DNA from: Yamagishiella unicocca
Taxonomy: Eukaryota > Chlorophyta > Chlorophyceae > Chlamydomonadales > Volvocaceae
NCBI GenBank assembly: GCA_003116995.1
Contig: BDSL01000082.1
Coordinates: 423,088-487,087, forward strand
DNA: 64,000 nt
Reading direction: 5' to 3'
Shown here: positions 51,461-64,000 of the stretch, piece after piece
How the letters are laid out: every line of letters starts with the position of its first letter
How positions within the stretch are numbered: the first letter of the stretch is position 1
Notes under the pieces: model-generated
Told to the model about the DNA's origin: nothing
The model's database searches: none
The model's input: the letters and a program-made list of their open reading frames with translations, nothing else
Made by a program: the position numbers and the translations under genes

Positions 51461-52135
51461 GCTTAGCATTTCACCCGATATCAAATGGTCTCTCCCGAGA
51501 CCATCCCACCAGTAACCGGCACCGGTAACCGGGCAAGTGGCCAGTTACTCAACCGATAGGCTCCTTGGAACAAATGGACGCTGAGGCCCGCGATTGCAGC
51601 TCTAGCATCATCTTCAGCTGTTATCAGTGTATTTTTATAAATTGTAACCACCTGACAAGCAAGACGGCTACCTGTGCGTATGTTGCATGTTTGCAACAAT
51701 ACAGCCTTTCAAACTTGATATATGTTCTTGAATCTTAAAGCATTAATATATCCTCAAAACGGCGGGAGCTTAGCATGACGAAAGCTTAGCATTTGACCCG
51801 ATATCAAATGGTCTCTCCCGAGACCATCCCACCGGTAACCGGCCCCGCCGGTAACCGGGCAAGGGGGACAGTTAGTGCGAGTGGTCCGTTACTGGGTGGC
51901 TGACCAACCGGGGGCCGGTTACCGGGGCCGATTACCGGCCCCGGTAACCGGGCAAAGGGGTCGGTTGGTGGGAGGGGTCTGTAACCGGGTGGCATGCCTA
52001 ACTGGTCGGTCCAATTACCGGCCCCGGTAACCGAGTAAGGGGGTCGGTTACTGGGATGGGTCGGTTACCGGGCGGCTGGCCAACCGGGGGCCGGTTAGAG
52101 GGGCCGATTACCGGCCCCGGTAACCGGGCAAAGAG
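51461..52135. repeat. Cluster of fold-back GGTAACCGG-rich repeats
   Basis: A block of about 50 bp (GCTTAGCATTT, then CGATATCAAATGGTCTC and GAGACCATCCCACC) occurs at about 51461-51515 and again at about 51784-51835. It contains a perfect 8-bp palindromic stem ATGGTCTC/GAGACCAT. After the second copy follow roughly three imperfect ~100 bp units centred on ATTACCGGCCCCGGTAACCG (about 51931, 52015 and 52107). No coding capacity. The look is that of a non-autonomous fold-back or miniature element. Confidence 0.7.
51917..51949. repeat. Perfect 14-bp hairpin, 5-nt loop
   Basis: GGTTACCGGGGCCG (51917-51930), loop ATTAC, then the exact reverse complement CGGCCCCGGTAACC to 51949. Confidence 0.85.
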
Positions 52136-52621: not shown

Positions 52622-52751
52622 CTAGCTGTTGCAACAGAAGCATAAACCTGTGGCATGTACCAGAGTCGGGAGCCTCTACCTGTGGCAAACACCTGTAGCA
52701 GGTACCCCTCTACCTGCTGTAGCAAAAGCAACAGGATTATTGCCAGCATCA

Positions 52752-52825
52752 TGACATCACCCAGTCTTGATCTGGGGACCTCTTGTGTGTTAAACAAGTG
52801 TGATAACCATCTACACCATGATGTC
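52752..52825 (-). tRNA. tRNA-Val (AAC), unit 1
   Basis: 74 nt including discriminator A. Perfect 7-bp acceptor stem GACATCA/TGATGTC, D arm with GG, anticodon stem CTTGT/ACAAG, loop TTAACAC (anticodon AAC; U32 variant shared with unit 4), T arm CCCAG-ATCAAGA-CTGGG. A box TGGTGTAGATGG and B box GATCAAGAC fit Pol III consensus. No encoded CCA. Confidence 0.88.
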
Positions 52826-52941
52826 TTCCATTGACCTGGATCATCACCCAGGTGGCCAACTACTAGCCATCCCTTTCCAGGGTCTCAGCTTGTGATCTGT
52901 GCTGACCCACATGCTTGATCAGCACACCCAGCATGACCCCA

Positions 52942-53015
52942 TGACAGCACCCAGGTTTGAACTGGGGACCTTTCGCGTGTGAGGCGAATGTGATGACCAA
53001 CTACACCATGCTGTC
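52942..53015 (-). tRNA. tRNA-Val (CAC), unit 1
   Basis: 74 nt including discriminator A. Acceptor stem GACAGCA/TGCTGTC fully paired, anticodon arm TTCGC-CTCACAC-GCGAA (anticodon CAC), T arm CCCAG-TTCAAAC-CTGGG, conserved D-loop GG. A box TGGTGTAGTTGG, B box GTTCAAACC. No intron, no encoded CCA. Confidence 0.92.
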
Positions 53016-53552
53016 AGAACCCAGAGGAACACGTCCATCTTGGCCTATCTCCCAACTGTGAGGTTTCGGCTTCGGTCCCGACTGCCTGGTGCTCCTGCGG
53101 GAGCTTCCTTTTTGCTCCTTTTCAGTTCGGGCTGGGTGCTGGTCTGGTGTGGGAGGAATGTTCTTGGGTGTCAGGTGGGAGGCTTCTGTTCGACTTTGTG
53201 AGGTGCTCTACTACGTACTCTGATTACTCTGATCGAGGGGCTGCTTGAAATAAATATGGGCGGTATATATACTGCTTATAGGGGGCCCATTTAGGCTACT
53301 TCCCCCTAGGTGGTTGATGCCACTGTTTGTTCTCTGGTACCTTTGTCGGGGGGTTTTGGTAAAGTGTGTACCTTAGCAACAGCCTGCTGCTGTAGCATCT
53401 AGCTGTTGCACAAGCCTGCAGCACCTACCAGAAGCATAAACCTGTGGCACGTACCAGTAGCAAAAGTCGGGAGCCTCTACCTGTGGCAAACACCTGTAGC
53501 AGGTTCCCCTCTACCTGCTGTAGCAACAGCCACAGGATTATTGCCAGCATCA

Positions 53553-53626
53553 TGACATCACCCAGTCTTGATCTGGGGACCTCTTGTGTGTTAGACAAGT
53601 GTGATAACCATCTACACCATGATGTC
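53553..53626 (-). tRNA. tRNA-Val (AAC), unit 2
   Basis: Same structure as in unit 1 but anticodon loop CTAACAC (C32), the common form in this array; all stems paired. Confidence 0.9.
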
Positions 53627-53742
53627 TTCCATTGACCTGGATCATCACCCAGGTGGCCAACTAATAGCCATCCCTTTCCAGGGTCACAGGTTGTGATCTG
53701 TGCTGACCCACATGCTTGATCAGCACACCCAGCATGACCCCA

Positions 53743-53816
53743 TGACAGCACCCAGGTTTGAACTGGGGACCTTTCGCGTGTGAGGCGAATGTGATGACCA
53801 ACTACACCATGCTGTC
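53743..53816 (-). tRNA. tRNA-Val (CAC), unit 2
   Basis: Identical in sequence to the unit 1 CAC gene; cloverleaf intact. Confidence 0.92.
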
Positions 53817-54349
53817 AGAACTCAGAGGAACACGTCCATCTTGGCCTACCACCCAACTGTGAGGTTTCGGCTTCGGTCCCGACTGCCTGGTGCTCCTGCG
53901 GGAGTTTCCTTTTTGCTCCTTTTCAGTTCGGGCTGGGTGCTGGTCTGGTGTGGGAGGAATGTTCTTGGGTCTCAGGTGGGAGGCTTCTGTTCGACTTTGT
54001 GAGGTGCTCTACTATGTACTCTGATTACTCTGATCGAGGGGCTGCTTGAAATAAGTAAGGTCGGTATACTGCTTATAGGGGGCCCATTTAGGCTACTTCC
54101 CCCTAGGTGGTTGATGCCACTGTTTGTTCTCTGGTACCTTTGTCGGGGGTTTTTGGTAAAGTGTGTACCTTAGCAACAGCCTGCTGCTGTAGCATCTAGC
54201 TGTTGCACAAGCCTGTAGCACCTACCAGAAGCATAAACCTGTGGCACGTACCAGTAGCAAAAGTCGGGAGCCTCTACCTGTGGCAAACACCTGTAGCAGG
54301 TACCCCTCTACCTGCTGTAGCAACAGCCACAGGATTATTGCCAGCATCA

Positions 54350-54423
54350 TGACATCACCCAGTCTTGATCTGGGGACCTCTTGTGTGTTAGACAAGTGTG
54401 ATAACCATCTACACCATGATGTC
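54350..54423 (-). tRNA. tRNA-Val (AAC), unit 3
   Basis: Loop CTAACAC, all stems paired; identical to unit 2. Confidence 0.9.
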
Positions 54424-54539
54424 TTCCATTGACCTGGATCATCACCCAGGTGGCCAACTAATAGCCATCCCTTTCCAGGGTCACAGCTTGTGATCTGTGC
54501 TGACCCACATGCTTGATCAGCACACCCAGCATGACCCCA

Positions 54540-54613
54540 TGACAGCACCCAGGTTTGAACTGGGGACCTTTCGCGTGTGAGGCGAATGTGATGACCAACT
54601 ACACCATGCTGTC
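54540..54613 (-). tRNA. tRNA-Val (CAC), unit 3
   Basis: Identical to the other CAC copies; cloverleaf intact. Confidence 0.92.
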
Positions 54614-55146
54614 AGAACTCAGAGGAACACGTCCATCTTGGCCTACCACCCAACTGTGAGGTTTCGGCTTCGGTCCCGACTGCCTGGTGCTCCTGCGGGA
54701 GCTTCCTTTTTGCTCCTTTTCAGTTCGGGCTGGGTGCTGGTCTGGTGTGGGAGGAATGTTCTTGGGTCTCAGGTGGGAGGCTTCTGTTCGACTTTGTGAG
54801 GTGCTCTACTATGTACTCTGATTACTCTGATTGAGGGGCTGCTTGAAATAAATATGGGCGGTATACTGCTTATAGGGGGCCCATTTGGGCTACTTCCCCC
54901 TAGGTGGTTGATGCCACTGTTTGTTCTCTGGTACCTTTGTCGGGGGTTTTTGGTAAAGTGTGTACCTTAGCAACAGCCTGCTGCTGTAGCATCTAGCTGT
55001 TGCACAAGCCTGTAGCACCTACCAGAAGCATAAACCTGTGGCACGTACCAGTAGCAAAAGTCGGGAGCCTCTACCTGTGGCAAACACCTGTAGCAGGTAC
55101 CCCTCTACCTGCTGTAGCAACAGCCACAGGATTATTGCCAGCATCA

Positions 55147-55220
55147 TGACATCACCCAGTCTTGATCTGGGGACCTCTTGTGTGTTAAACAAGTGTGATA
55201 ACCATCTACACCATGATGTC
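55147..55220 (-). tRNA. tRNA-Val (AAC), unit 4
   Basis: Carries the U32 loop TTAACAC like unit 1, one of the markers of the duplicated three-unit block. Confidence 0.88.
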
Positions 55221-55336
55221 TTCCATTGACCTGGATCATCACCCAGGTGGCCAACTACTAGCCATCCCTTTCCAGGGTCTCAGCTTGTGATCTGTGCTGA
55301 CCCACATGCTTGATCAGCACACCCAGCATGACCCCA

Positions 55337-55410
55337 TGACAGCACCCAGGTTTGAACTGGGGACCTTTCGCGTGTGAGGCGAATGTGATGACCAACTACA
55401 CCATGCTGTC
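55337..55410 (-). tRNA. tRNA-Val (CAC), unit 4
   Basis: Identical to the other CAC copies. Confidence 0.92.
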
Positions 55411-55947
55411 AGAACCCAGAGGAACACGTCCATCTTGGCCTATCTCCCAACTGTGAGGTTTCGGCTTCGGTCCCGACTGCCTGGTGCTCCTGCGGGAGCT
55501 TCCTTTTTGCTCCTTTTCAGTTCGGGCTGGGTGCTGGTCTGGTGTGGGAGGAATGTTCTTGGGTGTCAGGTGGGAGGCTTCTGTTCGACTTTGTGAGGTG
55601 CTCTACTACGTACTCTGATTACTCTGATCGAGGGGCTGCTTGAAATAAATATGGGCGGTATATATACTGCTTATAGGGGGCCCATTTAGGCTACTTCCCC
55701 CTAGGTGGTTGATGCCACTGTTTGTTCTCTGGTACCTTTGTCGGGGGGTTTTGGTAAAGTGTGTACCTTAGCAACAGCCTGCTGCTGTAGCATCTAGCTG
55801 TTGCACAAGCCTGCAGCACCTACCAGAAGCATAAACCTGTGGCACGTACCAGTAGCAAAAGTCGGGAGCCTCTACCTGTGGCAAACACCTGTAGCAGGTT
55901 CCCCTCTACCTGCTGTAGCAACAGCCACAGGATTATTGCCAGCATCA

Positions 55948-56021
55948 TGACATCACCCAGTCTTGATCTGGGGACCTCTTGTGTGTTAGACAAGTGTGAT
56001 AACCATCTACACCATGATGTC
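55948..56021 (-). tRNA. tRNA-Val (AAC), unit 5
   Basis: Loop CTAACAC; same as unit 2. Confidence 0.9.
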
Positions 56022-56137
56022 TTCCATTGACCTGGATCATCACCCAGGTGGCCAACTAATAGCCATCCCTTTCCAGGGTCACAGGTTGTGATCTGTGCTG
56101 ACCCACATGCTTGATCAGCACACCCAGCATGACCCCA

Positions 56138-56211
56138 TGACAGCACCCAGGTTTGAACTGGGGACCTTTCGCGTGTGAGGCGAATGTGATGACCAACTAC
56201 ACCATGCTGTC
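56138..56211 (-). tRNA. tRNA-Val (CAC), unit 5
   Basis: Identical to the other CAC copies. Confidence 0.92.
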
Positions 56212-56744
56212 AGAACTCAGAGGAACACGTCCATCTTGGCCTACCACCCAACTGTGAGGTTTCGGCTTCGGTCCCGACTGCCTGGTGCTCCTGCGGGAGT
56301 TTCCTTTTTGCTCCTTTTCAGTTCGGGCTGGGTGCTGGTCTGGTGTGGGAGGAATGTTCTTGGGTCTCAGGTGGGAGGCTTCTGTTCGACTTTGTGAGGT
56401 GCTCTACTATGTACTCTGATTACTCTGATCGAGGGGCTGCTTGAAATAAGTAAGGTCGGTATACTGCTTATAGGGGGCCCATTTAGGCTACTTCCCCCTA
56501 GGTGGTTGATGCCACTGTTTGTTCTCTGGTACCTTTGTCGGGGGTTTTTGGTAAAGTGTGTACCTTAGCAACAGCCTGCTGCTGTAGCATCTAGCTGTTG
56601 CACAAGCCTGTAGCACCTACCAGAAGCATAAACCTGTGGCACGTACCAGTAGCAAAAGTCGGGAGCCTCTACCTGTGGCAAACACCTGTAGCAGGTACCC
56701 CTCTACCTGCTGTAGCAACAGCCACAGGATTATTGCCAGCATCA

Positions 56745-56818
56745 TGACATCACCCAGTCTTGATCTGGGGACCTCTTGTGTGTTAGACAAGTGTGATAAC
56801 CATCTACACCATGATGTC
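56745..56818 (-). tRNA. tRNA-Val (AAC), unit 6
   Basis: Loop CTAACAC; same as unit 3. Confidence 0.9.
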
Positions 56819-56934
56819 TTCCATTGACCTGGATCATCACCCAGGTGGCCAACTAATAGCCATCCCTTTCCAGGGTCACAGCTTGTGATCTGTGCTGACC
56901 CACATGCTTGATCAGCACACCCAGCATGACCCCA

Positions 56935-57008
56935 TGACAGCACCCAGGTTTGAACTGGGGACCTTTCGCGTGTGAGGCGAATGTGATGACCAACTACACC
57001 ATGCTGTC
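56935..57008 (-). tRNA. tRNA-Val (CAC), unit 6
   Basis: Identical to the other CAC copies. Confidence 0.92.
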
Positions 57009-57541
57009 AGAACTCAGAGGAACACGTCCATCTTGGCCTACCACCCAACTGTGAGGTTTCGGCTTCGGTCCCGACTGCCTGGTGCTCCTGCGGGAGCTTC
57101 CTTTTTGCTCCTTTTCAGTTCGGGCTGGGTGCTGGTCTGGTGTGGGAGGAATGTTCTTGGGTCTCAGGTGGGAGGCTTCTGTTCGACTTTGTGAGGTGCT
57201 CTACTATGTACTCTGATTACTCTGATTGAGGGGCTGCTTGAAATAAATATGGGCGGTATACTGCTTATAGGGGGCCCATTTGGGCTACTTCCCCCTAGGT
57301 GGTTGATGCCACTGTTTGTTCTCTGGTACCTTTGTCGGGGGTTTTTGGTAAAGTGTGTACCTTAGCAACAGCCTGCTGCTGTAGCATCTAGCTGTTGCAC
57401 AAGCCTGTAGCACCTACCAGAAGCATAAACCTGTGGCACGTACCAGTAGCAAAAGTCGGGAGCCTCTACCTGTGGCAAACACCTGTAGCAGGTACCCCTC
57501 TACCTGCTGTAGCAACAGCCACAGGATTATTGCCAGCATCA

Positions 57542-57615
57542 TGACATCACCCAGTCTTGATCTGGGGACCTCTTGTGTGTTAGACAAGTGTGATAACCAT
57601 CTACACCATGATGTC
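57542..57615 (-). tRNA. tRNA-Val (AAC), unit 7
   Basis: Loop CTAACAC; cloverleaf intact. Confidence 0.9.
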
Positions 57616-57731
57616 TTCCATTGACCTGGATCATCACCCAGGTGGCCAACTACTAGCCATCCCTTTCCAGGGTCACAGCTTGTGATCTGTGCTGACCCAC
57701 ATGCTTGATCAGCACACCCAGCATGACCCCA

Positions 57732-57805
57732 TGACAGCACCCAGGTTTGAACTGGGGACCTTTCGCGTGTGAGGCGAATGTGATGACCAACTACACCATG
57801 CTGTC
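57732..57805 (-). tRNA. tRNA-Val (CAC), unit 7
   Basis: Identical to the other CAC copies. Confidence 0.92.
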
Positions 57806-58338
57806 AGAACTCAGAGGAACATGTCCATCATGGCCTACCACCCAACTGTGAGGTTTCGGCTTCGGTCCCGACTGCCTGGTGCTCCTGCGGGAGCTTCCTT
57901 TTTGCTCCTTTTCAGTTCGGGCTGGGTGCTGGTCTGGTGTGGGAGGAATGTTCTTGGGTCTCAGGTGGGAGGCTTCTGTTCGACTTTGTGAGGTGCTCTA
58001 CTATGTACTCTGATTACTCTGATCGAGGGGCTGCTTGAAATAAATATGGGCGGTATACTGCTTATAGGGGGCCCATTTGGGCTACTTCCCCCTAGGTGGT
58101 TGATGCCACTGTTTGTTCTCTGGTACCTTTGTCGGGGGTTTTTGGTAAAGTGTGTACCTTAGCAACAGCCTGCTGCTGTAGCATCTAGCTGTTGCACAAG
58201 CCTGTAGCACCTACCAGAAGCATAAACCTGTGGCACGTACCAGTAGCAAAAGTCGGGAGCCTCTACCTGTGGCAAACACCTGTAGCAGGTTCCCCTCTAC
58301 CTGCTGTAGCAACAGCCACAGGATTATTGCCAGCATCA

Positions 58339-58412
58339 TGACATCACCCAGTCTTGATCTGGGGACCTCTTGTGTGTTAGACAAGTGTGATAACCATCTA
58401 CACCATGATGTC
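58339..58412 (-). tRNA. tRNA-Val (AAC), unit 8
   Basis: Loop CTAACAC; cloverleaf intact. Confidence 0.9.
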
Positions 58413-58528
58413 TTCCATTGACCTGGATCATCACCCAGGTGGCCAACTACTAGCCATCCCTTTCCAGGGTCACAGCTTGTGATCTGTGCTGACCCACATG
58501 CTTGATCAGCACACCCAGCATGACCCCA

Positions 58529-58602
58529 TGACAGCACCCAGGTTTGAACTGGGGACCTTTCGCGTGTGAGGCGAATGTGATGACCAACTACACCATGCTG
58601 TC
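58529..58602 (-). tRNA. tRNA-Val (CAC), unit 8
   Basis: Identical to the other CAC copies. It lies only about 75 bp from the LINE junction, so its natural upstream (5') flank is replaced by retrotransposon sequence. Confidence 0.92.
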
Positions 58603-58675
58603 AGAACTCAGAGGAACATGTCCATCATGGCCTACCACCCAACTGTGAGGTTTCGGCTTCGGTCCCGACTGCCTG

Positions 58676-61600
58676 GTGGACCTGATCGCTTCTGGCCGGC
58701 TGGTGGCAGCGGCCTCACCACTGCTCCCTGGTCTCGCGGGTGATCAACCTGCAGTTGCTGCTTCCTCCCCCCCCTCTCGTTCCCTGTCACCGCCGCCCCG
58801 CTCACCGTCCCCTGGGCCGGCCGCCGACGCGGGTCCCTCCGCCGCCGCCGTGTCCGTGGCGGCGGCCTCGGGGGTGGCGGCCTCGGTGGCGGCGGCCGCC
58901 GCGGCCGCGGCCGTGGCGGCCACGGCGGCGGCGGTAGCCTCGGCCGCCACGGCGCCCCGTGGTGGGGACGCCGCTGCGCCTCCCCCCGCCGCGGCGGCCC
59001 TGGAAGGGGCCGGCCTGGCCGCGGCTGACCAGCCTCCGGCGGTCCCGGCCGCATCCTCCTCCGCAGCGGGGCGCCTCGCCACCTACTCCTTCACCTGGCT
59101 GGGTCATCGCCTGCACCTCACCAATGTTTATCTGCCCGCTAGTAGCTCGGCTTCACGCGCTGCTTTCCTCCAGCAGCACCTGGCGCCTGTGCTGGCGACC
59201 AGCACCCCGGGCCAGCATGTCCTAGCCGGCGACTTCAACTTCGTCGCTGGCCCGTGGGACAGCAGTGCGGGGTCGGCGCGAGTGGTTCGCGACCGCCCTG
59301 CCGCTCGGGTCCTCGCGACAGTGGGCCCGTCGTTGGCTGATGTGCATCGTGAGCGCTTCCCCACCAGCACGGATTACACCCACCTCTACTCCGCCCCCTC
59401 CCCCGGTGGTTCCCGCATCGACCGCATCTATGTGTCCCGCTGCCTCCTCCCCTTCGTGGCGGGCTCCGCCATTGAGCTGGGCTCGCCTTCCGACCACCGC
59501 GTCCCCTGCATCCAGCTGCTGCCCCGGGTTCCTGCCTCGCGCGGCCCCGGCCTCCGTCGCACCCGCATGGCCTTCTCTGGCCACCGCGACCTCAAGGATC
59601 AGCTGCAGGCCTGGCTCGACGCGGCGTTCGCGGCCATGCCGGCTGAGGGGGAGCACGCTGCCCTGCTGGCGTGGTGGCCGGGCTTCAAACGGCGGCTGGC
59701 GGCGGTGGCGGCGATTCTCAATCGCACCGCTCGCTCTCGGCGCCTGGCCTCGGGCGCGCAGGTGGAGGCAGCCCGAGCCGCCTTGCGGGCGGCCCACCTT
59801 GCGGCCGCGACGCCGTCGGCGGCGCCCGAGGCCGTGGGTGGTGTGGTGGCCGCCCAGGCTGCCTTGGCGGTGGCCTTGCGTGTGGCGGCGGCGGGCGAGG
59901 CCGCCCGGGTACGCGTGGCGTGGGTGCGCGAGGGGGAGCGCCCGTGCCCCGCACTCACCGCCATGATTCACCCACCGCGGTCGTCCCAGGACATTACCGC
60001 GCTGCGCGACGCTGCTGGGCGCCTCGTGACCGACCCGCGCCAATTGCCCAATGTCGTCGCTTCTTTCTGGGAGCGCATCAGCTGCCTGCCGTCAGGCCTG
60101 GACTCGGCGGATCAGCAAGCGGTTCTGGCAGCTGTCGACGCCCACTCTACTCCGATCTCGCCCGATCTTCGCCCCGAGTTGGGCTCCATCGCAGTCTCAG
60201 CAGCGGAGGTGGCGCGGGCCCTGCAGCAAGCCAAGCCTGGCACGTCCCCAGGCTGGGACGGAATCCCTGTGGATCTCCTCCGGACCTACAGTGGCTGCTT
60301 TGTGCCGGCACTGGCCCGCCTTTTCACTGCTATCGGCCATCTGCGCGCCGTCCCGACGGGTTTCCTGCAGGGTGTTATATCCGTCATTTACAAGGGCCAT
60401 GATGCGGACCGGGCGGCGGCCGGCGCCTACCGCCCCATCACCCTGCTCTGTACTGATTACCGCATTCTGGCGAAGGTCCTCGCCAACCGCCTCAGCCCTG
60501 GCCTTTCCGCCGCCATCCCCCTCGAGCAGTCCGCCTTCCTCCCCGGCCGCTCCATTGGCGCCAACACCCGCTTCCTTCGCTGCCTCCCCCCCCTCCTACA
60601 CCAGCAGCAACGGAGTGCTCTCATCGCCTTCTTGGATTTCGCCAAAGCTTACGACACCATTGACCGCTCCTTCCTCTTTGCTGTCATGGAGCGCATGGGT
60701 GTTGGGGCCGGTTTCCTGGGATGGACGCAGCTCCTGTTGGGCCGTACAGTGGCCATGGCGTCCGTCAACGGCTACATCTCCCGCTCTGTCCCTATCCGGG
60801 CCGGCGTCCGGCAGGGCTGTCCCCTTGCCCCGCTCCTATACCTCTTCGTGGCCCACGCCCTCCTCTGCTGGCTGAAGCGGCACGGTGTTGGCGTGCCGCT
60901 GGCCCCGGCGGACCCGGCCAGCCTGGTTACCGGCGTGCAGTTTGCTGATGATGCCCAAGTCGCGCTCCCAGATGCAGCTGCAGTACCGCCATTTATCGCC
61001 CTCATGGCCGCGTTTGCCCGCGCCTCTGGCCAGCACCTGAATCCCTCCAAGGTCGAGCTGCTGTGGGCTGGTCGCCAGGTGGCGCCGGCGCTCGCCGCCC
61101 CGGCTGCCGTCCTTGCCGCTGCGGTGGCGGCCGTCGCCGCCCCTGCCGCCGCGTGGACCGCTGCGGGCGGTGCCGCCGCTTCACCCGCCGCCCCGAGCGC
61201 CGCTGCTGCCGAGGCGCCGGTGGAGGCCGCCCCGGCAGGCGCTGGCGCCGCCGCCGTACCTCCTGACGCCCCGGCCGCCGCCGCTGCTGCCGCTGCGCCG
61301 GTGGCTGCCGCCCTGGCCGCCGCTGCTGCTGCCCCGCAGGCGGCTGCCGCCCCGGCCGCCGCGGCTGCCGTGGCGCCGGCGGCTGCCGTCCTGGTCGCAG
61401 TGGCCGCCGAGGCGCTGGCGACCGCCGGTCCGGCTGCCGCCGGTGGTGCTCCTGGGGCGGCCGCGGGTGCCGCGGCCCCCACGGTGCTGACGACCGCAGC
61501 CCCGGCCGCCGCTGGCGCCGCCGCAGCGTCTCCCCCGCCTCCTGACGCCCCAGCCGTCGCGGCCGTCACTGCCGCCCCCACTGCCCCGGCCGCCCCAGCC

Positions 61601-63689
61601 GCTCCAGCCGCCCCAGCCGCCCCTGCTGGCGCCGCCAGCTCCCCCGTCGCCCGTCACCCGCCTCGCCTGGCGCGCCCACCAGGGCTGGCTCGCCGCGGTC
61701 GTCGGCGTCGTGGCCGCGGTGCTGCAGCTGTCGTGGTCGTGGGCGCCCTCGCCGCAGCCGCTGGCGCCCTGGCCGCCCCGGGTCCCTCCACGTCGCCGTC
61801 CCTTGCCGCCACCGCTCCCGGGGTGCCTCGCCCCTCCCCTTCTCCCCCGCCCCCTGCCCTCGCTGGCCTTCGGATCGTGCCCGCTGCGGTGGCGCTGGGC
61901 ATCCCCTTCACCAATCCGCCTGCCGCCCCCGTCCTCGATTGGGCGTCACGGATGTCGGAGGCCCGCCGCCGTCTCCAAAAGATCTCCCGCATGGCCCTGT
62001 CGATGTTCGGCCGTGCCACTGCGGCTGCAGCTTATGCTCTCCATATGGCGACGTACCACATGGAGCACTCGGGCTGCCCGCCGGCGGAGGTCCTTGCTGG
62101 CATCATGGCCTTGTCGCAAAGCTGGTGGATCGGGAGCTAGGGCCCTGATGACGCCCAGCGCCGTTTCACTGGTGTCCCCCTCCGCCTGCTCTCCGGTCAT
62201 CCACCATCGGCGGCTTCGGTGTACTGCCCTTCGGCTGCATGTCCTCAGCCGGCATGCCAAGTGGAGCCTGACGGTCGCCCGCTCCGCGCTGCAGCCCCCG
62301 GCTGCCCGCGCGCCGTGGGTCCGGATTGCGGTCTCCTTCCTCTCTACCCTCCACCCTGCTTCCGCCCGCTGGCCGTCACCACAGCTCGCCCGGATGGCCC
62401 GTGGCTCGGCGCCCCCTTAAGCTTGCCCCCGGACATCCACCGGCTTGCCACGAGCCTCGGTCACCTCCCCCCCTGTCTGACGTCGCGGACCCCCCCCTGG
62501 AGCCGGGCGTCTGGTGCTTCAACGCGCCGCTGTGGGGCAACCCGCTCCTGCCCAACGCGGGGGCGCCGGGCCGGCGGCCGGGGTTGGAGGCTATCCATGG
62601 CCCCCTCACCATGTGCCGCCGCCTGCTGACCGTCGGTGACGCCGTCCGGGTGCAGGACGCTATGACCGCGTTTGAGGTGGAGCGCGCCCATGCCCTGGCG
62701 ACGACGCCGGGCATGGCCATCTTCAGCCGGCTGGCTGAGCGCTGGACGACGCTCGTACGGCACGAGCTGGCGCCCTCCGAGCTGGCCATGGGTGCGCTCC
62801 AAGATCGCATCGCGGCGCGGGCTGCGGTGGCCGCTCTCCTTTCTGACATCTCGCCCGCATGGCTCGCTGCTGCTCGCCTGGCGCCCGATGGCCCCGCCCC
62901 CCGTCGCCTGACGAGGTGGATGCTCTCCTCCTTGCTCGCCTGGGGTGGCGGCTGGGTGTGGACGCCGTGCTGCCCCTCACCTCCTTCACCGTCAAGCTGG
63001 GCACCCTGCTCCAGGCGGCGGAACTGGAGCGCCCCAGGCAGGCCTGTCATGCGGCGTATGTGCGGGAGGCGCTCGGGCTGTCCCCTGCTGTGGCTGCCAC
63101 GCCCGAGGCGGCCCTTGTGGCGTTACGCGCGGTATGGCGGCGGTTGTGGAAGCGTCTTAAGTGGGAGCCGCGGTGGAAGGAGGTCCTCTGGCGGCTGGCG
63201 GTTGACGGGGTGCCCATGCCGGGCTCCTCTCACCTCCCGCTGGTCCCACCCGAACCGTGTGCTTGCGGCTGTTACCCCGCTGCAGCGGGTGTGGCCGAGT
63301 CGCCGCGCTTCCATCACTTTTGGTCTTGCCCCCTCGTCCGCCCGCTCTGGGATGAACTGGAAGTCTGCTGTGGGTGCGGGGTCACGCGTGAGCATGTGTG
63401 GTTGTGTGTGTCGCCGGATCCGACCACTGTGCTGCAGTGTGTGTGGGATGTGGTGGCGTTGGCGGCGCTCAACGCGATGGAGTGGGCGCGCCGGTACATA
63501 CACTCTCATCGGCTCTCCGGCACCACCCTCCCTGCTGCTATGCGTTCTGGCCTCCTTGCTAAGTTCTGGGCCTTGCTGCGGGACTTTGCGGGCTTGGGTT
63601 TGCCCCGCAAGGACTGGGGTGACGTGGGGGTGGACCACCCATTTTTGTTCGTAACCGGGGGTCGGCTCATGTGCGCCGTGCCGCCCTAG
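58676..63689 (+). pseudogene. LINE ORF2: endonuclease/reverse transcriptase, frame-broken
   Basis: Open from 58676 to a TAG at 62138-62140. Order: Ala/Pro-rich start (to about residue 130); second half of an exonuclease-endonuclease-phosphatase domain (LTNVYLP, GDFNFV, SRIDRIYVS, SDHR); reverse transcriptase from about residue 510 (AYRPITLLCTDYRILAKVLA, SAFLPGRSI, FLDFAKAYDTID, GVRQGCPLAPLLY, and active site FADDAQ near 760); an Ala-rich insert (about 795-1060); the RT thumb region (GLRIVPAAVALGIPFTN, then RRRLQKISRM). Beyond the stop the coding signal jumps among frames near 62.21, 62.36, 62.47 and 62.91 kb. The last frame reaches 63689 and includes a zinc-knuckle-like CACGC followed by RFHHFWSC, as in other LINE C-termini. 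The N-terminal half of the endonuclease is missing, so this copy is non-autonomous. Confidence 0.88.
61060..61860 (+). repeat. Ala/Pro-rich low-complexity block inside LINE ORF2
   Basis: About 265 codons dominated by GCN and CCN (GCCGCCGCTGC, GCCCCGGCCG and similar), in frame, lying exactly between the RT palm (LNPSKVELLWAG) and the thumb (GLRIVPAAVALG). In related LINEs these two segments are nearly adjacent. Confidence 0.8.
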
Positions 63690-63982
63690 CTAGCCTGCCT
63701 TGGATGCTGTTTGTTCTTTCGTTCTTTCTTTCCTGGTGCCACCTTTGCTGGTTCGAGATACGAGTGGTGCGGGTGATGGGCAGGTGCCAATGGGGGCTTT
63801 TGTGGTGGTTTTGACGCGTAAGGGTGGCCTGCATGGGGCCGTGTCCTGCCGTCGCTTGTGCTGACTTTGCATGATGCTGTTTGCCTGCTGTTGCCCGTAC
63901 CCGACCTTGGTTCCGTGTCTCTTCCGCAGTGCTTTCCCGCCGGGATAAGGGCGGGTGCCGCCTGTCGTGCGGCCACTGTAAC

Positions 63983-64000
63983 GCGGTCTCTCTCTCTCTC
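63983..64000. repeat. (TC)n microsatellite at window end
   Basis: At least eight TC units; possibly the 3' tail of the LINE. Truncated by the window edge. Confidence 0.7.

What the first reader, a model, noticed from the sequence alone, without database searches (positions are those of the whole stretch)
52622..58678. Tandem array of 16 intact tRNA-Val genes as paired CAC/AAC isoacceptors in a ~797-bp unit
Each of eight units holds one tRNA-Val(CAC) and one tRNA-Val(AAC), both minus strand, 190 bp apart start to start. All acceptor stems are fully paired, with consensus A and B boxes. The CAC copies look identical and the AAC copies differ only at position 32. Two different valine isoacceptors amplified as one cassette suggests a dosage mechanism or a repeat that uses tRNA promoters. 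Clustered tRNA genes are known in volvocine algae, but a valine-pair satellite of this kind is not something I know to be described.
Basis: partly seen in the sequence, partly recalled or inferred. Interest (0 to 1): 0.82.

Follow-up and report, generated by a model that had tools for sequence, protein, structure and literature searches.

The report
Tandem array of paired valine tRNA genes
A green-alga genome carries a long head-to-tail array of two kinds of valine tRNA gene, which form their own lineage with intact folding, lack the usual nearby stop signals and may be made as joint precursors; such tRNA arrays are known elsewhere, so this is a good new example rather than a new kind of thing.

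Summary
Confirmed. Sixteen intact minus-strand tRNA-Val genes (8 CAC identical, 8 AAC with two alleles at position 32) lie in 797/801-bp units. The array continues on four other contigs: about 118 Val genes, against 6 CAC, 6 AAC and 2 TAC found outside. Most likely this is one tandem tRNA-gene array (probably between the ends of contigs C82 and C91), grown by unequal exchange, whose genes form their own lineage under cloverleaf selection. Array CAC differs from dispersed CAC at 10 sites: 8 form four compensated stem pairs, none breaks a pair. Array AAC shares the array CAC T stem and most of its acceptor stem and lacks the intron seen in 6 of 6 dispersed AAC genes, so it looks like an anticodon-switched sister. 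The array genes lack the near T-run that 11 of 12 dispersed CAC/AAC genes have; in seven of eight units the only TTTT is 87 nt after AAC, so CAC and AAC are probably co-transcribed. At 58679 a LINE, probably 5'-truncated, is inserted into a unit; whether it prefers tRNA arrays stays open. Expression is untested. Precedents: Entamoeba arrays, Arabidopsis SYY cluster, a bryophyte ('Cpu').

The parts
52635..58678 (-). Tandem array: one partial unit (positions 345-797) and seven full 797/801-bp units, plus 11 bp of a ninth cut by the LINE
   Evidence: blastn of one unit on the window, spacing
52752..52825 (-). tRNA-Val(AAC) copy 1 (T32 allele)
52942..53015 (-). tRNA-Val(CAC) copy 1
53553..53626 (-). 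tRNA-Val(AAC) copy 2 (C32)
53743..53816 (-). tRNA-Val(CAC) copy 2
54350..54423 (-). tRNA-Val(AAC) copy 3 (C32)
54540..54613 (-). tRNA-Val(CAC) copy 3
55147..55220 (-). tRNA-Val(AAC) copy 4 (T32)
55337..55410 (-). tRNA-Val(CAC) copy 4
55948..56021 (-). tRNA-Val(AAC) copy 5 (C32)
56138..56211 (-). tRNA-Val(CAC) copy 5
56745..56818 (-). tRNA-Val(AAC) copy 6 (C32)
56935..57008 (-). tRNA-Val(CAC) copy 6
57542..57615 (-). tRNA-Val(AAC) copy 7 (C32)
57732..57805 (-). tRNA-Val(CAC) copy 7
58339..58412 (-). tRNA-Val(AAC) copy 8 (C32)
58529..58602 (-). tRNA-Val(CAC) copy 8
54259..54262 (-). The only TTTT on the minus strand of this unit, 87 nt after AAC (example; one per unit, first T at 58251, 57454, 56657, 55860, 55059, 54262, 53465, and at 52727 in the edge unit, there 24 nt after AAC): candidate shared Pol III terminator
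54647..54937 (+). About 290-bp stretch of the unit (example copy) that is 77-85% alike in the C12 Phe/Cys/Pro unit and at single places in C74 and C64: fragment of an older dispersed repeat
   Evidence: (40 of 205 candidates scored)
58679..64000 (+). LINE (endonuclease + reverse transcriptase), probably 5'-truncated, inserted in the ninth unit; runs to the contig end

Best explanation
A nuclear tandem tRNA-gene array. Shown: 797-bp units each with one intact Val-CAC and one intact Val-AAC gene, repeated on five contigs; array genes differ from the dispersed Val genes by compensated stem changes; no T-run lies between the two genes. Inferred: a Val-CAC gene was copied beside itself, one copy switched anticodon to AAC (no intron; anticodon stem re-paired), the pair was amplified by unequal crossing-over, and the genes stayed under selection for the tRNA fold. 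If transcribed, Pol III reads CAC then AAC as one precursor of about 350 nt that ends at the TTTT 87 nt past AAC and is cut into two tRNAs. The array probably fills the gap between the ends of C82 and C91 and has collected LINE insertions.
For: Cloverleaves. Extent: pattern hits 36+87=123 genome-wide, reversed-pattern control 0; 100 listed, 5 of these outside array contigs; all 65 exact hits of the AAC pattern are listed: 59 in the five array contigs, 6 outside. Lineage: dispersed CAC to array CAC = 10 differences, 4 compensated double changes plus 2 unpaired, 0 broken; array CAC to array AAC = 14, 4 compensated plus 6 unpaired, 0 broken; of 200,000 random sets of 10 changes none gave 4 or more compensated pairs with none broken. 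Intron: inserts of 14-20 nt after the anticodon in 6 of 6 dispersed AAC genes, none in the array AAC. Constraint in the array, 56 units: tRNA genes 2 of 148 sites with substitutions and 1 indel event, spacers 36 of 649 and 46 (Fisher, substitutions alone, 0.031; two-gene mask slid round the unit: 10 of 797 placements as low; much the same without 7 probably redundant units); 23 units of the two long contigs: 1 and 0 against 34 and 8, Fisher 0.012, 27 of 797. Terminators: 11 of 12 dispersed CAC/AAC genes have T4+ within 0-11 nt, the 12th at 40 nt; array CAC 277 nt and AAC 87 nt in 7 of 8 units, 214 and 24 in the edge unit.
Against: No expression data. The missing near terminators could equally mean weak or no productive transcription. 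Array AAC departs from array CAC and dispersed AAC in the T loop at 54, 59 and 60. Rfam's fast filter misses the array genes but not 4 of 4 dispersed CAC genes given. The within-array constraint is modest (about 0.01-0.03) and sites are linked; the compensated changes may predate amplification. Array AAC shares with dispersed AAC two anticodon-stem pairs that CAC lacks, so conversion is an alternative to a plain anticodon switch. One CAC copy is damaged (68 nt, L018). Small contigs carry many 1-bp indels, likely sequencing error.
Confidence: 0.55

Rival explanations
1. An inert satellite: once-functional tRNA genes amplified and kept alike only by unequal exchange and conversion, now silent in heterochromatin, as the Arabidopsis SYY cluster is in most tissues.
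For: No near terminators; LINE insertions; a damaged copy; units so alike that recent homogenisation could explain the intact genes; SYY is silenced in most tissues (PMC12308677 abstract).
Against: tRNA genes vary less than spacers in the same units; stems intact in all 16 window genes.
Confidence: 0.35
2. Gene dosage: the array exists to supply Val tRNA for codon demand.
For: About 118 array genes against 14 found outside.
Against: Private sequence rather than copies of the dispersed genes; both isoacceptors raised equally; other arrays hold Lys-CTT and Phe/Cys/Pro. Codon usage was not measured here. [quoted passage not shown]
Confidence: 0.1
3. A tRNA-derived SINE or other mobile repeat using tRNA promoters.
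For: Internal A and B boxes are present; one stretch of the unit is a fragment of a dispersed repeat.
Against: Among listed hits the array-type genes lie only in five contigs, all tandem with a fixed period; two separate complete cloverleaves; ARAGORN finds no tRNA beside the repeat fragment in C74 and C64 (L044, L045).
Confidence: 0.03
4. Assembly artefact: repeated placing of one or a few real units.
For: Array contigs end inside the array; the C893 units before the LINE match C82 (4 of 7 compared pairwise: 0 mismatches, one 1-bp indel), so C893 probably overlaps C82.
Against: Units carry distinct variants in a partly 3-unit pattern, and 23 full units sit in two contigs of 445 and 487 kb. 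Third and fourth units before the LINE differ between C82 and C941 by 4 and 6 substitutions.
Confidence: 0.04

Closest known systems
Entamoeba tandem tRNA arrays (PMC2652664, passages read)
   Same: Head-to-tail units with several tRNA genes, near-uniform units; E. invadens [FVV5] holds two Val isoacceptors (CAC and GAC).
   Different: There almost all tRNA genes (E. histolytica) are in arrays; here dispersed genes for the same isoacceptors remain and the array genes are a separate lineage.
Arabidopsis SYY (Ser/Tyr/Tyr) tRNA cluster (PMC12308677, passages read)
   Same: Tandem cluster with gene variants sorted apart from the dispersed set; tandem duplication origin.
   Different: Ser and Tyr rather than two isoacceptors of one amino acid; chromatin state and expression known there, unknown here.
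Multi-tRNA tandem units in the bryophyte coded 'Cpu' (PMC12652284, passages read), incl. Val-AAC/Glu/Phe on Chr02
   Same: Cassette of different tRNAs repeated many times.
   Different: Different combination; array-versus-dispersed divergence not addressed in the passages read.
tRNA gene clustering in Volvox carteri (1051 tDNAs, 41% clustered) and Chlamydomonas reinhardtii (336, 56%) (PMC2888827, passages and section 6 read)
   Same: Heavy tRNA clustering in the algal group to which this genome probably belongs.
   Different: No Val pair array is described in the parts read.

Membership tests
Functional eukaryotic tRNA gene (Pol III type 2) | Complete cloverleaf with paired stems and A/B boxes | tested here: met
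   RF00005 64.1 and about 55 bits; pairs listed (one T-T at the end of the D stem, as in the dispersed genes); boxes read from the sequence, consensus recalled
Functional eukaryotic tRNA gene (Pol III type 2) | T-run shortly after the gene | tested here: not met
   277 nt (CAC) and 87 nt (AAC) in 7 of 8 units, 214 and 24 in the edge unit; 11 of 12 dispersed CAC/AAC genes within 11 nt
Functional eukaryotic tRNA gene (Pol III type 2) | Transcribed, processed and charged | not testable with these tools
   no RNA data
Tandem tRNA-gene array | Near-identical head-to-tail units each carrying tRNA genes | tested here: met
   56 units aligned over 700 bp or more, 93.7-100% identical to the reference unit
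Entamoeba-type genome-wide arrays | Almost all tRNA genes of the genome lie in arrays | tested here: not met
   14 dispersed Val genes; other tRNA hits spread over many contigs, 63 of 3122 candidates scored
Entamoeba-type genome-wide arrays | Short tandem repeats between genes | tested here: inconclusive
   degenerate 26-bp repeats in the spacer
SYY-type clustered tDNA | Cluster genes distinct from the dispersed set | tested here: met
SYY-type clustered tDNA | Epigenetic silencing with tissue-specific release | not testable with these tools
   no methylation or expression data
tRNA-derived SINE | Dispersed copies | tested here: not met
   array-type genes in five contigs only among listed hits, all tandem

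The most novel reading that the evidence does not exclude
The array is a private tRNA-Val system: a CAC/AAC pair that arose by anticodon switching, has evolved apart from the dispersed genes with compensated stems, and is read as terminator-poor dicistronic precursors, perhaps only in certain cells or stages.
Probability: 0.25. Interest if true: 0.65.

Novelty: new member of a known kind. Interest (0 to 1): 0.42.

Why it matters
Why genomes keep large tandem tRNA arrays is open. Here the array genes can be told apart from the dispersed genes by sequence (10 of 74 bases for CAC; 20 of 74 for AAC, which also lacks the intron), so tRNA-seq in this alga could measure directly whether an array contributes to the tRNA pool. 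The intronless AAC gene is also a likely case of anticodon switching inside an array.

Tried and rejected
For: LINE pieces occur in the Val, Lys and Phe/Cys/Pro arrays; one C91 junction lies about 13 bp from the C82 junction in the unit; of 20 sampled 3' flanks (401 bp each; 20 of the 46 matches listed), 4 carry weak tRNA-like stretches (29.3-35 bits), and 2 of these 4 also hold 178 bp identical to the C12 unit. Against: the element is abundant (526 first-look candidates, 40 scored); ARAGORN finds 0 tRNAs in 20 of 20 flanks; the other C91 junction lies elsewhere in the unit. The 20 flanks are not independent: by mutual similarity they form about 11 groups.

LINE as owner of the array (units as 5' monomers): rejected; the open frame runs back into the unit, only the second half of the endonuclease profile is matched, and the array resumes after the LINE in C893 and C941.

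Known RNA family in the shared 290-bp stretch: none, only tRNAs up to E=10. Val-TAC as parent of the array genes: sequences look unlike (by eye). A first TAC pattern gave one hit that I do not take for a Val-TAC gene; a second gave the two genes. Whole-genome tRNA census: the RF00005 search scored 63 of 3122 candidates, so Val genes were counted by patterns; a gene outside them would be missed. Ten of the 27 listed reading frames of the window left of the array were scanned: no Pfam match. A paper search with six terms found nothing. Volvox africanus (Thai strain, 141.0 Mbp, 129 contigs; PMC10291315 passages) does not fit this genome's numbers.
Full report
What is there. The window is the last 64 kb of contig C82 (487,087 bp) of a 133.4-Mb genome in 1415 contigs. 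Sixteen tRNA-Val genes, all on the minus strand, lie at 52752-58602: 8 CAC, one sequence, 64.1 bits; 8 AAC, two sequences, 54.9 and 55.5 bits. CAC and AAC starts are 190 bp apart in 8 of 8 units, and units repeat at 797 or 801 bp. Rfam's fast gathering mode returns nothing for the array but finds 4 of 4 dispersed Val-CAC genes given to it; the permissive mode finds all 16.

Extent. The same unit fills C893, C941 and C1388 (10-15 kb each; C893 and C941 with a LINE) and the end of C91. ARAGORN counts in the pieces read are C82 16, C893 22, C941 22, C1388 24, C91 33, 117 in all; one more probably spans a piece boundary and one AAC in C1388 is seen only by the pattern. The pattern total is 123 (100 listed), of which 5 listed hits lie outside the array contigs. 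The AAC pattern has 65 exact hits, all listed: 59 in the five array contigs and 6 outside. These are not all independent genes: the C893 units before the LINE match C82 (4 of 7 compared: 0 mismatches, one 1-bp indel), and C893 and C941 match after it (4 units compared: 0 mismatches, one 1-bp indel). In C82 the array runs off the right end, and C91 turned round has the same orientation, so the two are probably the edges of one locus with the small contigs between (inference).

Outside the array I found 6 Val-CAC, 6 Val-AAC and 2 Val-TAC genes. The 6 AAC genes carry inserts of 14-20 nt after the anticodon, which I read as introns; because of them ARAGORN named only 1 of 6 as Val-AAC, while RF00005 matches 6 of 6 at 48.6-49.2 bits. 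The CAC gene on C77 has a 15-nt insert there too and no RF00005 match at E 0.01. Search by pattern can miss variants.

Lineage and constraint. Against the dispersed CAC gene, array CAC has 10 differences: three compensated pairs in the acceptor stem, one in the T stem, two unpaired bases, none broken. Array CAC and array AAC differ at 14 sites: four compensated pairs (one acceptor, three anticodon stem), six unpaired, none broken; they share six of seven acceptor pairs and the whole T stem. Array AAC differs from one dispersed AAC gene, intron removed, at 20 sites. Of 200,000 random sets of 10 changes none gave four or more compensated pairs with none broken. So the array genes diverged while the cloverleaf was kept. 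Array AAC shares with dispersed AAC two anticodon-stem pairs that CAC lacks, so conversion of the anticodon arm is an alternative to a simple anticodon switch.

Within the array (56 units aligned over 700 bp or more) the tRNA genes carry 2 substitution sites and 1 indel event in 148 positions, the spacers 36 and 46 in 649; without 7 probably redundant units the figures are 2 and 1 against 36 and 43; in the 23 units of the two long contigs they are 1 and 0 against 34 and 8. Sliding the two-gene mask round the unit, 10, 10 and 27 of 797 placements are as low. This is moderate support for selection after amplification.

Transcription. 11 of 12 dispersed CAC and AAC genes have a run of four or more T within 0-11 nt and the twelfth at 40 nt. 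In the array, the first such run is 277 nt after CAC, beyond AAC, and 87 nt after AAC in 7 of 8 units; in the edge unit it is 214 and 24 nt. A joint CAC-AAC precursor is the simplest reading; weak transcription is the other. Co-transcription of closely spaced tRNA genes in Chlamydomonas is recalled (Cognat and others 2008, not read here). In the C12 array the Pro and Cys genes likewise have no T-run in the 44 nt between them in the three pairs seen.

Surroundings. At 58679 the unit is cut by a LINE (endonuclease and reverse transcriptase), which runs to the contig end. Only profile positions 116-225 of the endonuclease are matched, so the copy is probably 5'-truncated. The same junctions occur in C893 and C941, with 0 mismatches to C82 over the LINE, only indels; the two units before it also have 0 mismatches between C82 and C941, but the third and fourth differ by 4 and 6 substitutions. 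So this is one insertion, either duplicated with part of the array or assembled more than once. C91 has LINE 3' ends at two further unit positions, one about 13 bp from the C82 site. Whether the LINE prefers tRNA arrays is open: ARAGORN finds 0 tRNAs in 20 sampled 3' flanks, but 4 of the 20 hold weak tRNA-like stretches of 29-35 bits, and the flanks form only about 11 groups. About 290 bp of the unit is a fragment of a dispersed repeat found also in the C12 Phe/Cys/Pro unit, C74 and C64.

Other arrays in the genome: Lys-CTT on C132, mostly at 3.03-3.07-kb steps (16 genes in the pieces read), and Phe-GAA/Cys-GCA/Pro-AGG on C12 at 2.55-2.87-kb steps with one longer gap (5 Phe, 3 Cys, 4 Pro in the pieces read). 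Tandem tRNA arrays are therefore not limited to Val here.

Species. Size and contig number are close to the Yamagishiella unicocca plus-strain assembly (134,234,618 bp, 1461 contigs, N50 666,310; PMC6123790 passage; GC 61.0% in the column with 1461 contigs of the table passage of PMC8226300); window GC is 60.6%. This is an inference, not an identification.

Known or new. Tandem tRNA arrays with several genes per unit are known in Entamoeba, including a unit with two Val isoacceptors (PMC2652664, passages), in Arabidopsis (PMC12308677, passages) and in a bryophyte coded 'Cpu' (PMC12652284, passages); heavy tRNA clustering is known in Volvox carteri (PMC2888827, passages and section 6). In the listings of my searches (20 of 73 papers, 20 of 56, 8 of 8, 12 of 39; titles and starts of abstracts) I saw none that describes this Val pair array. 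I rate it a new member of a known kind; the pair's separate lineage and missing terminators are its unusual points.

Noticed in passing
L020-L022, L027-L031 (G000:C132:99000-179999): Tandem array of tRNA-Lys(CTT), mostly at 3.03-3.07-kb steps, 16 genes in the pieces read, with a LINE 3' end inserted in it.
   Followed up: partly
L023, L024 (G000:C12:614000-633999): Tandem array of tRNA-Phe(GAA), Cys(GCA) and Pro(AGG) at 2.55-2.87-kb steps; no T-run between Pro and Cys in three pairs seen.
   Followed up: partly
G000:C702:8562-9686; L049, L050, L053, L048, L056, L060: LINE 3' ends repeated close together, LINE body soon after a LINE 3' end in 2 of 20 flanks sampled and short LINE tail pieces in 4 more: nested self-insertion, as described for Zepp elements; PMC8226300 (passage) reports no evidence for ZeppL in Y. 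unicocca or V. carteri.
   Followed up: partly
L054, L059, L057, L066: tRNA-like stretches of 29-35 bits (RF00005) in LINE 3' flanks, one beginning within 20 bases of the LINE end, two copies about 200 bp apart in L054 and L059; not called by ARAGORN. Possible SINE or decayed tRNA repeat.
   Followed up: partly
L037-L042: All six dispersed tRNA-Val(AAC) genes have a 14-20-nt insert after the anticodon and the same acceptor letters, with an A-G mismatch (pairs checked in one gene).
   Followed up: partly
L025 (G000:C65:483000-491000): Small cluster of tRNA-Gly(GCC) and tRNA-Lys(CTT) genes, some directly adjoining.
   Followed up: no
G000:C22:856666 and C22:858129: A dispersed Val-CAC gene lies about 1.4 kb from the start of a matched LINE 3' end.
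   Followed up: no
window 51500-52130: GC-rich repeats of the kind CCGGTAACCGG left of the array.
   Followed up: no
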